44,341 bases of DNA. It comes from Solirubrobacter deserti (GTDB lineage: Bacteria; Actinomycetota; Thermoleophilia; Solirubrobacterales; Solirubrobacteraceae). Of the stretch, positions 2,021-28,811 are shown piece after piece (the first letter of the stretch is position 1; each line of letters begins with the position of its first letter). The DNA is taken from positions 1-44,341 of the forward strand of contig NZ_JAPCID010000059.1 in the NCBI RefSeq assembly GCF_027587175.1. The letters are read 5' to 3'. The position numbers and the translations under genes were made by a program. A model generated the notes under the pieces. It ran no database searches, was not told the origin of the DNA, and worked only from the letters and a program-made list of their open reading frames with translations.

Positions 2021-3448
2021 ATGGCACGGTCACGCCTGATTCTCGCCCTGCCGGTGCTGGCCCTGCCGGTGGGCCTCACGTTCGCCAAGGGCGGCTACTT
2101 CGACGTCCCGCGCCTGGCCGCGGGCGTGATCGCGTGCGCGCTGGTCGTGGTCGCGGCGGTCGCGACCAAGCGGCCGCTGCCCCGCGAACGCGCGCCCCGT
2201 CTCGCGCTGCTCGGCCTGGCCGCGCTGACCGCCTGGACGGGCGCCTCCCTGGCCTGGGCGCCGATTGCGGGCGTGGCCGGCGACGACCTCCAGCGCCTGC
2301 TCCTCTACCTCGCCACGTTCACCGCCGCGCTCGCGCTGCTGCCGCCCGCGCGCCGGATCGTCGAGCCCGTGCTGCTGGCCGGGATCGTCGCCGCCGCACT
2401 CTACGGCCTGTCCGAGCGCCTGCTGCCGGGCGTGTTCGAGCTCCAGACGCTGCCGTCCGCCAACGACCGCCTCGCCTGGCCGCTCACCTACTGGAATGCG
2501 ATGGGCGCGCTGATGGGCATGGGCCTCGTGCTCGCGGCGGCGACCCGAAACCGCGTCGCGGCGGCCGCCGCCCCACTGCTCGGCCTGGCGCTGTACCTGA
2601 CCTTCTCGCGCGGCGCGCTCGGGGCGACCGCCGTCGGCGTCGCCGCCCTGCTCGCGCTCGAACCCACCCGCGAGCGCCTGACCCGCACGCTGCTCGTCGC
2701 CGTCGCCGCCGCCATTCCGGCGCTCGCCACGTTCGCCCTCGGCGACCTCGAACGCCCCGGGGGCAGCGCGGCCCAGGGCGCGGCGATGCTCGCGCTGCTG
2801 GCCGTCACGAGCGCCGCCGCGGCGGCCCTGTTTCCGAAAGAGGGACTGTCCCTCTTTAGGAAACACCCCCGCTTTTTCCAGCCTGCCGTGAGGATCGACC
2901 CACACGAACCTAAAGAGGGACAGTCCCTCTTTATGTTGCGGGCGGTGGCGATCGGGGTGCTCGTGCTCGCGCTGGGGGCCACGATCGTGCTCTCGACGAG
3001 CGGCGGGCCGACGGAGACGCCCGCGAACGCGGAGGCGTCGCGGCTGCTGTCCACGCAGTCCAACCGGGACGAGTACTGGCGCGTGGCGCTGAGCACCTTC
3101 GCCGAGCACCCGCTCAACGGCGCGGGCAGCGGCGCCTTCCGCACGGAGTGGCTGCGCGAGCGCGAGATCCCGGAGGCCGTCCGGGACGCGCACTCGCTGT
3201 ACTTCGAGACCGCCGCCGAGCTCGGCCTGGTCGGGCTCGCGGCGCTCGCCCTGTTCCTCGGCGGGATCGTCGGGATGGCGCGGCGCAATCCCCAGGCGGG
3301 CGCGGTCGCCGCGCTCGTCGTCTACGCCGCCCACGCGGGGCTGGACTGGGACTGGGAGCTCCCCGCGCTCACGCTCTTCGCGCTCGTGCTCGCCGCGCGG
3401 CTGGCGGACGAAGCGCCATCAGCGGACGCTCGACCAGCACCCAGCTAG
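2021..3448 (+). CDS. O-antigen ligase/polymerase-like (Wzy/WaaL) membrane protein
   Basis: This 475-aa protein has about 10-12 hydrophobic segments. Its C-terminal half carries the Wzy_C-type signature: EHPLNGAGSGAF, then a conserved DAHSLYFETAAELGLVG stretch. Such proteins polymerise or ligate lipid-linked glycans on the outer face of the membrane. Residues about 271-305 (FPKEGLSLFRKHP ... PKEGQSLF) do not look like this family. They are encoded by a palindromic repeat pair at 2831-2933 inserted in frame in a loop between two membrane helices. The ATG lies 3 bp from the start of the divergent AftD-like gene, and no Shine-Dalgarno is visible. The 3' end overlaps the convergent acyltransferase gene by 80 bp. 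Neighbours (flippase, GT-C and GT4 genes) fit a surface-polysaccharide role. Confidence 0.8.
   Translation: MARSRLILALPVLALPVGLTFAKGGYFDVPRLAAGVIACALVVVAAVATKRPLPRERAPRLALLGLAALTAWTGASLAWAPIAGVAGDDLQRLLLYLATFTAALALLPPARRIVEPVLLAGIVAAALYGLSERLLPGVFELQTLPSANDRLAWPLTYWNAMGALMGMGLVLAAATRNRVAAAAAPLLGLALYLTFSRGALGATAVGVAALLALEPTRERLTRTLLVAVAAAIPALATFALGDLERPGGSAAQGAAMLALLAVTSAAAAALFPKEGLSLFRKHPRFFQPAVRIDPHEPKEGQSLFMLRAVAIGVLVLALGATIVLSTSGGPTETPANAEASRLLSTQSNRDEYWRVALSTFAEHPLNGAGSGAFRTEWLREREIPEAVRDAHSLYFETAAELGLVGLAALALFLGGIVGMARRNPQAGAVAALVVYAAHAGLDWDWELPALTLFALVLAARLADEAPSADARPAPS
2831..2933. repeat. REPIN-like pair of inverted palindromes inside a coding sequence
   Basis: Palindrome 1 (2831-2863) has 16-bp arms around a single central base; its core is AAAGAGGGAC-T-GTCCCTCTTT and there is one mismatch. 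Palindrome 2 (2911-2933) is TAAAGAGGGAC-A-GTCCCTCTTTA and is perfect. The two lie in opposite orientation: the 24 bp at 2837-2860 are the exact reverse complement of 2909-2932, separated by 48 bp. This is the layout of REP doublets (REPINs) mobilised by RAYT/Y1 transposases. Both palindromes are read in the same frame and encode near-identical peptides, PKEGLSLF and PKEGQSLF. No transposase gene is present in the window. Confidence 0.8.
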
Positions 3449-27658: not shown

Positions 27659-28255
27659 ATGAGGCGGCTGTTCGATCTACTCGAGGAGGCGGCGCGCAAT
27701 GCGGTGCGCGCCGCTGACCTGCTCGTGACCATTCTCGAGCAGTGGCCGGACGCCGCCGCGACGACGCGCGAGATGGTCGACTGCGAGCACGAGGGCGACC
27801 GCATCACGCACGACATCTTCAGCTGGCTCAACGAGGGCGGCAAGATGGCCTTCGACCGCCAGGACGTGATCACGCTCGCCTCGGCGCTCGACGACATCGT
27901 CGACTTCACCGAGGAGGTCGCGGACTTCCTCGGGCTGTACAAGATCGAGGCGCCGATGGAGGCCGCCGAGCAGATGGCCCGCGTCCTGCGCGACGCGGCC
28001 CGGCAGATCGCCGAGGCGATGCCGCGGCTGCGCAAGCTGCAGGACATCCACCCGCAGCGGCTCGAGGTCAACCGGCTCGAGGACGAGGGCGACCGGATCT
28101 ACCGCGAGGCGGTCGCCGCCCTGTTCGACCACGGGATCGATCCGATGCTCGTGATCCGCTGGAAGGACCTCTTCGAGCGCCTGGAAGAGGCGATCGACGC
28201 CACCGAGCGCACGGCCAACACGCTCGAGGGCATCATCATCAAGCACGGTAAGTGA
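27659..28255 (+). CDS. DUF47 family PhoU-like protein
   Basis: This 198-aa all-helical protein has the PhoU-like repeats E-x-E-G-D-x-I-T/Y-x-D/E: CEHEGDRITHDIF (residues about 42-54) and RLEDEGDRIYREAV (about 139-152). These E/D clusters bind metal in the family. DUF47 proteins usually sit next to a PiT-type inorganic phosphate transporter and modulate it. No pit gene follows here, so the partner must be elsewhere. The TATAGT -10 lies 9 nt upstream. The 3' end overlaps the convergent acyltransferase gene by 17 bp. Confidence 0.9.
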   Translation: MRRLFDLLEEAARNAVRAADLLVTILEQWPDAAATTREMVDCEHEGDRITHDIFSWLNEGGKMAFDRQDVITLASALDDIVDFTEEVADFLGLYKIEAPMEAAEQMARVLRDAARQIAEAMPRLRKLQDIHPQRLEVNRLEDEGDRIYREAVAALFDHGIDPMLVIRWKDLFERLEEAIDATERTANTLEGIIIKHGK

Positions 28256-28811
28256 TTTCGCGCAGCACGCGGGCGGGTGCGCCGGCCGCGATGCTGAACG
28301 GCGGGATGTCGGTCGTGACGACGCTGTTGGCGCCGATCACGCAGCGCTCGCCGACGGTCACACCGGACGTGATGACGACGTTGGCGCCGCACCAGACGTT
28401 GTCGCCGATGGTCGTCGGGCCCTTGGACGTGAAGCCCTGCCAGGTGATCGGCTGGTCGGGGTCGTCGAAGCGGTGGTTGCCGTCCGTGACGAAGCAGCCG
28501 TTGGCGAACATGCAGTGCGCGCCGATCGTGACCCGGTCCACCGCCGCGACCTGGACGCCGAGGTTGAGGATGCTGCCGTCGCCGATGTGGATGCGGCCCG
28601 AGCCCGTGAGCCACACGTTCGGCTCCAGCAGGACGTGCTCGCCGAGCGTGAGGCGGTTCTCGTCGAAGAGCTCGAGGATCTCGCCGTGGATCGGCCAGCG
28701 CGCGAACGAGCGCCGCTTCGCGAACTCGTAGTGGATGCGCGCGCGGTTCCAGGGGAGGGAGTTGCGTTGGTACCAGCGCCACTTCTGCGCCCACAGCTTG
28801 AGGTCGTCCAC
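28239..28811 (-). CDS. Hexapeptide-repeat (LbH) O-acyltransferase
   Basis: This 190-aa protein has a left-handed beta-helix built from hexapeptide repeats, from about residue 60 to 175: RIHIGDGSILNLGVQVAA, VTIGAHCMFANGCFVTDGNH, TTIGDNVWCGANVVITSGV, and VTVGERCVIGANSVV. The end, FSIAAGAPARVLREI, is typical of maltose O-acetyltransferase-like and WbbJ-like enzymes that acetylate sugars. The GTG at 28811 is chosen because TAACAT lies 7 nt upstream and no ATG or TTG is in frame between it and the upstream divergent gene. A longer frame to 29069 would run over the LysM gene. It may decorate surface glycans. Confidence 0.78.
   Translation of the reverse strand: MDDLKLWAQKWRWYQRNSLPWNRARIHYEFAKRRSFARWPIHGEILELFDENRLTLGEHVLLEPNVWLTGSGRIHIGDGSILNLGVQVAAVDRVTIGAHCMFANGCFVTDGNHRFDDPDQPITWQGFTSKGPTTIGDNVWCGANVVITSGVTVGERCVIGANSVVTTDIPPFSIAAGAPARVLREITYRA

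What the first reader, a model, noticed from the sequence alone, without database searches (positions are those of the whole stretch)
2831..2933. REPIN-like inverted palindrome pair inserted in frame in a polysaccharide ligase gene
Two palindromes with the same 21-bp core (AAAGAGGGAC-N-GTCCCTCTTT) sit in opposite orientation with 48 bp between, inside the coding sequence of a Wzy/WaaL-like protein. The frame stays open through both, and each encodes nearly the same octapeptide (PKEGLSLF and PKEGQSLF). The added 34 residues fall in a loop between two membrane helices. Mobile palindromes of this kind normally lie between genes, so an in-frame, tolerated copy is unusual.
Basis: partly seen in the sequence, partly recalled or inferred. 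Interest (0 to 1): 0.72.

Follow-up and report, generated by a model that had tools for sequence, protein, structure and literature searches.

The report
Mobile palindromes read as protein
A soil bacterium carries dozens of copies of a small mobile-type DNA palindrome, and several of them, including the pair here, sit inside genes where the reading frame runs straight through and would add an extra loop of protein; it is a new family of a phenomenon already known from a few other bacteria.

Summary
Two 33-bp palindromes (2831-2863, 2906-2938) with the exact 21-bp core lie in frame in a Wzy_C polysaccharide ligase of Solirubrobacter. The core has 59 places in this genome (<=3 mismatches). It is a REP-type repeat: all 4 RAYT transposases of one clade, in 3 species, are flanked on both sides by it; copies are absent or mostly imperfect in three congeners without that RAYT; and it was found in 5 of 232 genomes of the order, all of this genus. 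Five congeners lack the ligase insert, which fills a hypervariable loop between two predicted helices.

The ligase is no lone case. In four species 29 coding sequences of 18 families read through a copy in frame; seven families show it in more than one species. The palindrome is open in two of three frames; the third carries TAA. No gene interior passing my coding test uses that frame, but 41 of 87 gene ends near copies lie exactly at that TAA (shifted controls 0).

In-frame REPs are already known (Di Nocera 2013; Rickettsia RPE). This one lacks their GTAG tag, and the inverted-doublet "REPIN" label is only partly met. Verdict: new variant of a known kind.

The parts
2021..3448 (+). Wzy_C/O-antigen-ligase-like membrane protein, 475 aa, host gene of the insert
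   Evidence: open frame; PF04932 E 8.7e-14; orthologues in congeners
2831..2863 (.). palindrome 1 (33 bp, core 2837-2857, centre T), read FPKEGLSLFRK; G at 2836 instead of the usual T of the arm is synonymous here (CCT/CCG, Pro)
   Evidence: phase 0; usual arm TTTCCT
2864..2905 (.). 42-bp spacer of the doublet (core start-to-start distance 75; 11 of 18 pairs of the family lie at 75-78)
2906..2938 (.). palindrome 2 (33 bp, core 2912-2932, centre A), read EPKEGQSLFML

Best explanation
The pair is a copy of a REP-type palindrome family of Solirubrobacter, spread by a cognate RAYT (Y1 HUH transposase). It landed in an already variable loop of a membrane polysaccharide ligase and is read as a flexible segment of about 36 residues. 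It is tolerated because of its frame properties: the 33-bp palindrome is a multiple of three and stop-free in two of three frames on either strand, and the 108-bp doublet is also a multiple of three. In the third frame it presents TAA; copies in that phase are found at gene ends, where they serve as the stop codon. Shown: copy number, linkage to one RAYT clade, phase pattern, absence of the insert from five congeners, loop position by alignment and prediction. Inferred: that the RAYT moves the repeat as single-stranded DNA, that the ligase is made and active, and that purifying selection is the filter.
For: 59 places in the genome, control 0. All 4 RAYTs of one clade (G000 C30, G000 C86, G003 C4, G004 C236; 67-70% identical; split from the other six with support 1.000) have the palindrome on both sides; the 6 other RAYTs of the six genus genomes do not within 420 nt (palindrome places). 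Copies at <=2 mismatches: 56, 26 and 56 in the genomes with such a RAYT; 11, 0 and 0 in those without. Perfect cores among recovered copies: 41/54, 17/27, 41/52 against 1/11 in G001. In-frame reading: 26 of 126 sites pass the strict two-sided coding test with an open frame, 12 in phase 0, 14 in phase 2, 0 in phase 1. With a lower threshold, plus one site (L087) added by hand, 29 proteins in 18 families; one representative of each family was scanned and all 18 have Pfam matches. All 8 in-frame doublets have a length divisible by three, against 6 of the 11 other doublets. Insert absent in congeners: ligase (5 of 5), LytS-type kinase (4 of 4 with the gene). Loop position.
Against: No sufficiently close empty site was found for the ligase itself, so clean insertion cannot be told from insertion plus loss of about 10 residues. 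In the S9 peptidase, REP-bearing orthologues and the G005 orthologue without the palindrome have nearly equal length, which a plain insertion does not predict. RAYT matches to NF047646 are below its curated cut-off (60.9-68.7 against 80 bits), although PF01797 is above its own. Doublet orientation is not the classical inverted one. One site (L068) has coding signal on both sides in the stop phase; I read it as the end of one gene and the start of the next. There is no proteomic or transposition evidence. The RAYT/copy-number link rests on six genomes of one genus. Coding calls come from my own codon model, trained on G000 loci, not from annotated genes.
Confidence: 0.86

Rival explanations
1. 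The palindromes in genes are kept because they do something there: a domesticated linker peptide or an mRNA/DNA hairpin that regulates the host gene, rather than neutral passengers.
For: Same-position copies in more than one species for 7 of 18 families: S9, MocR-A and CydDC-like by alignment, APH, one MFS, EamA and ADH by matching flanking residues. Cores unchanged in G000, G003 and G004 at the S9 site and at the right-hand CydDC-like site. In the MocR-B linker G000 has this REP while probable orthologues (72-79% identical) of G001 and G003 have a second REP family.
Against: The gene functions are unrelated. The window copy is absent from the five congeners. In G001, without the cognate RAYT, 10 of 11 copies are imperfect. 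The MocR-B orthologue of G004 (78%) shows no clear REP. Cross-species sites were mostly found by motif matching, which favours conserved cores. No test of selection was made.
Confidence: 0.13
2. The ligase is a pseudogene or dying gene in which the insertion is not under selection.
For: The insert replaces a stretch of a membrane protein; function was not tested.
Against: 475 aa without a stop, coding signal on both sides (30 and 31), 68% identity to S. soli over residues 1-257 and 64% over 306-472, good fold confidence in most of the protein outside residues 271-343. The one change from the usual arm in palindrome 1 is synonymous.
Confidence: 0.06
3. Chance or assembly artefact.
For: none found
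Against: 0 of 100 shuffles; 59 genomic places, control pattern 0; identical stretch in the CPCC 204708 record.
Confidence: 0.01

Closest known systems
Intragenic GTAG and CGTC REPs (Di Nocera et al. 2013, PMC3733652; section 15, part 1 of section 17 and passages read)
   Same: Short palindromes, singles and dimers, a number of them in frame inside unrelated genes, 20-30 aa for dimers or groups; REP ends often give the stop codon of flanking ORFs; GTAG families are tied to transposase genes.
   Different: No GTAG within 12 nt 5' of any stem (0 of 145 palindromes, about 7 expected), no CGTC excess; near-perfect dyad with a 1-nt centre; host is Solirubrobacter (order-wide search: this genus only); shared in-frame sites among species are documented here.
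Rickettsia palindromic elements, RPE (seen only through passages of PMC10969869 and PMC3733652; the primary paper PMC186582 is not held)
   Same: Palindromes in frame in unrelated protein genes, read as an extra peptide.
   Different: RPEs are about 150 bp (PMC10969869) against 33 or about 108 bp here; the CGTC group, to which intragenic RPE-4 and RPE-6 correspond, has no transposase association in PMC3733652 Table 1, whereas here a candidate RAYT is at hand.
REPIN/RAYT system (PMC3116915 and PMC8049555; passages read)
   Same: RAYT-linked palindromes, doublets at a preferred spacing (75-78 in 11 of 18 pairs), diverse spacers, copies mostly perfect where the cognate RAYT is present.
   Different: Mostly singlets (107 of 126 sites); central base the same in 11 of 12 aligned doublets; two RAYTs of the clade in one genome, where PMC8049555 calls RAYTs single-copy; many intragenic copies, whereas in P. 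fluorescens SBW25 only 14 of 1,067 16-mers overlapped genes (PMC3116915).

Membership tests
REP (repetitive palindrome tied to a RAYT) | short palindrome in many dispersed copies | tested here: met
   59 places on many contigs, control 0
REP (repetitive palindrome tied to a RAYT) | same palindrome flanks a Y1/RAYT gene | tested here: met
   4 of 4 RAYTs of one clade in three species; 0 of the 6 others (palindrome places)
REP (repetitive palindrome tied to a RAYT) | GTAG or CGTC tag beside the stem (the two super-families of PMC3733652) | tested here: not met
   GTAG 0 of 145, CGTC 9 of 145 against about 40 expected by a rough local frequency
REP (repetitive palindrome tied to a RAYT) | extragenic location | tested here: inconclusive
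   of 75 coding frames entering a copy 27 read through >120 nt; 70-93 do at four shifted control positions, so copies in genes are depleted about threefold but not absent
REPIN | two REPs in inverted orientation as the unit | tested here: inconclusive
   spacing preference 75-78, but 11 of 12 aligned pairs same-centred; the palindromes are too symmetric for a firm orientation
RAYT (NF047646) | score over curated cut-off | tested here: not met
   60.9, 63.9 and 68.7 bits against 80 for the three G000 genes; PF01797 over its cut-off
RAYT (NF047646) | cuts and joins single-stranded REP DNA | not testable with these tools
   needs purified protein
Rickettsia RPE | sequence homology to an RPE family | not tested
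   only the principle was compared, from papers

The most novel reading that the evidence does not exclude
The repeat is a frame-switchable gene part. In two phases it is a ready-made linker peptide; in the third it is a stop codon that can be read from both strands. The genus has used it both ways: linkers of some regulators and transporters are built from REP DNA and turn over between REP families, and about 40 genes in four species end exactly at its TAA, some convergent pairs sharing one copy. Insertion may even prefer stop codons: in six of seven REP-ended genes with a close REP-free counterpart the protein length differs by at most one residue (three of the six could instead be deletion scars).
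Probability: 0.25. Interest if true: 0.72.

Novelty: new variant of a known kind. Interest (0 to 1): 0.5.

Why it matters
Palindromes inside protein genes are best known from Rickettsia, an obligate intracellular genus. Here the repeats, several congeners with filled, repeat-free and imperfect sites, and a candidate mobilising enzyme flanked by the same repeat occur together in Solirubrobacter, a genus with named culture-collection strains (record titles). That makes the origin of loops and linkers from mobile DNA directly testable, and gives a simple rule (phase decides peptide or stop) that predicts which insertions survive.

Tried and rejected
Rfam: no match in the window at the gathering score. 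Solved structure for the G000 C30 RAYT by sequence: none at E 1e-3. Genes split by a frameshifting copy: 8 sites had coding frames that differ on the two sides of one strand, and one more (L068) had stops in the middle. On inspection, in 8 of these 9 the upstream frame ends 6 nt into the repeat, at its TAA, and in one (L242) 29 nt in; I read them as gene ends, though truncation is not excluded for each. Target-site motif: not resolved. The cleanest empty site (LytS-type kinase) suggests about 42-45 bp inserted; two others (L094/L203, one in each direction) keep CCT/AGG-like arms and may be deletion scars of the inner hairpin rather than empty targets. I did not score core against flank conservation, because sites were chosen by the motif. 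Pfam on ten long ORFs of the window gave names for three; the rest may be shadow frames.

Rows dropped: 5 of 59 own-genome places (<=3 mm) and 5 of 56 in G004 (<=2 mm) were beyond the search listing and not in the fetched loci; G003 (26) and G001 (11) are complete. The strict in-frame test (scores >12) left out L067, L217 and L087, which one search has with a lower threshold (L087 by hand). One search aligned only the 12 pairs at 66-82 of 18 pairs. L065 was left out of the gene-end comparison because its G004 counterpart ends in another repeat.

Papers searched for prior reports. In the listings (titles and abstract starts; one search showed 15 of 1,691, one search showed 10 of 34) I saw no report of this family in Solirubrobacter; ('REP-associated tyrosine transposase' with Actinobacteria) found 0 papers. 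Only open-licence papers are held. The labels MocR, LytS, CydDC and HUH for these proteins are recalled, not given by a family search.

Full report
Observation. The window holds two exact matches to AAAGAGGGACNGTCCCTCTTT, at 2837-2857 and 2912-2932; 100 shuffles give none. With their arms each palindrome is 33 bp (2831-2863, 2906-2938), 42 bp apart. The ligase ORF 2021-3448 reads through both without a stop and matches Wzy_C. The repeat stretch is residues 271-306. In palindrome 1 the G at 2836, where the usual arm has T (TTTCCT), is synonymous in this frame.

Host. The best named match is Solirubrobacter sp. CPCC 204708, 100% over 475 aa and over 6445 bp of DNA. The whole ligase ORFs of S. 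phytolaccae, S. taibaiensis and S. soli are identical in DNA to those of G003, G004 and G005, so I take these handles to be those species; that is inference.

The family. The own genome has 59 places at up to 3 mismatches, control 0. At up to 2 mismatches 4 of 61 relatives (G000 counted) have it: G000 56, G001 11, G003 26, G004 56; the other 57, G002 and G005 included, have 0. In 232 genomes of the order, 5 have it at up to 1 mismatch, all of this genus, one of them a second genome of the same species.

Transposase. PF01797 finds 3 genes in G000, 1 in G001, 0 in G002, 2 each in G003, G004 and G005. Four of these ten (G000 C30, G000 C86, G003 C4, G004 C236) are 67-70% identical to each other and 47-58% to the rest, and the unrooted tree splits them from the other six with support 1.000. 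All four have the palindrome on both sides: upstream, starting 70-76 nt before the start codon, and downstream either at the stop codon (G000 C30, C86) or read into the C-terminus (G003, G004) (with palindrome places). None of the other six has it within 420 nt. Genomes with such a gene hold mostly perfect copies (41 of 54, 17 of 27, 41 of 52 recovered); G001, without it, holds 1 perfect of 11; G002 and G005 hold none. This is the pattern expected if the repeat needs its own RAYT. NF047646 scores of the three G000 genes stay under its cut-off.

A second palindrome family, AAAGGGGTCNGACCCCTTT, occurs 17, 22, 2, 21, 60 and 140 times (<=2 mismatches) in G000, G001, G002, G003, G004 and G005 and lies on both sides of the third G000 RAYT (C38: 27940-27958 with two mismatches and 28548-28566, around 28048-28371).

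In-frame copies. I took 126 sites (145 palindromes) from G000, G001, G003 and G004 and scored the flanking 60 codons in all frames with a codon model trained on the G000 loci. Twenty-six sites have coding signal on both sides in one open frame: G000 7 of 41, G003 8 of 25, G001 4 of 10, G004 7 of 50; one more (L068) has signal on both sides with stops between, and I read it as a gene end. Phases of the 26 are 12, 0 and 14 for FPKEG-, stop- and LKRDSP-reading. If phase were random the chance of none in the stop phase is (2/3)^26, or (2/3)^17 = 0.001 if only the 17 distinct families in this strict set count. With a lower threshold and L087 added by hand there are 29 proteins in 18 families. All 8 in-frame doublets have a length divisible by three, against 6 of the 11 other doublets. 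Pfam names, one representative per family: Wzy_C (window), Wzy_C plus TPR, two GntR-aminotransferase (MocR type), S9 peptidase, amidase, APH, ABC transporter (CydDC-like), His_kinase (LytS type), two MFS, EamA, MMPL, GT9, zinc dehydrogenase, LuxR with AAA, sigma-70 region 4, and a ketoacyl-synthase/acyltransferase protein. In both MocR-type proteins the repeat lies between the GntR and the aminotransferase domains.

Age and turnover. Same-position copies occur in more than one species in 7 of the 18 families. The S9 copy is intact in G000, G003 and G004 and has three changed core bases in G001; G005 has a stretch of equal length without the palindrome. The LytS-type copy is in G000 only, with four congeners lacking it. 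In the MocR-B linker G000 has this REP; probable orthologues of G001 (79%) and G003 (72%) have the second family at that place, G005 (69%) has similar residues, and G004 (78%) has no clear REP.

The ligase loop. G001-G004 have about 10 residues where this protein has 35; S. soli (G005, L105) has 114 residues there, an independent proline-rich tandem repeat. Hydropathy places the insert between hydrophobic stretches 252-273 and 300-329. AlphaFold2 gives helix 250-270, a low-confidence coil 271-300 (one short helix, 278-281) and helix 301-328, itself of low confidence. The site looks like a permissive loop that has been filled twice by different means.

The stop phase. Of 75 coding frames entering a copy, 42 end at its first TAA in phase 1, 4 end elsewhere inside, 27 read through more than 120 nt and 2 stop soon after; at four shifted control positions 2-5 end inside and 70-93 read through. 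Of 87 gene ends found near copies (252 strand-sides searched), 41 lie exactly at that TAA; four shifted controls give 0. At least four copies (L092, L094, L231, L247) end two convergent genes. Seven REP-ended genes have a REP-free counterpart at least 75% identical: six differ by at most one residue in length (L074, L094 both strands, L203, L229, L231 minus) and one (L231 plus) is about nine shorter. Of the six, L094 (both) and L203 may be deletion scars. More distant homologues vary more; L061 and L233 run about 20 residues beyond their 50-53% homologues. This does not yet separate insertion at stop codons from later capture of the stop, or from truncation.

Known or new. Intragenic REPs, stop codons given by REPs, and transposase linkage of GTAG families are in PMC3733652; Rickettsia RPEs are in the review PMC10969869. 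What differs here is the untagged, almost perfectly symmetric palindrome, the host genus, the RAYT/copy-number match across congeners, and the shared and swapped in-frame sites. I therefore file it as a new variant of a known kind, with moderate interest.

Noticed in passing
REP sites in L061-L097, L176-L249: 41 of 87 gene 3' ends near copies lie exactly at the repeat's own TAA, against 0 at four shifted control positions; at least four copies end two convergent genes.
   Followed up: partly
L094 and L203 (G000 and G001): At two gene-end loci one species has the repeat and the other only its outer arms (CCTTAGG, TCCTAATCAGGA), like a deletion scar of the hairpin; the two cases go in opposite directions.
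   Followed up: partly
G000:C38:27940-28566 (L097) and five congeners: A second palindrome family, AAAGGGGTCNGACCCCTTT, beside its own RAYT in G000; 140 copies (<=2 mm) in G005.
   Followed up: partly
L105 (S. soli), ligase loop: Independent proline-rich tandem repeat (PSPADAAPTP-like) in a 114-residue loop at the position of the window's insert.
   Followed up: partly
L086, L083, L072, L093, L178: Composite form in which the REP is joined to a small palindrome like GCGACANNTGTCGC.
   Followed up: no
L176 (G003) and L223 (G004): Two RAYT reading frames run on into their own downstream palindrome, giving REP-coded C-terminal tails.
   Followed up: no
L104, L110, L118: Contigs titled Bifidobacterium breve MAG encode a ligase 40-48% identical to this Solirubrobacter one; the labels look wrong.
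   Followed up: no
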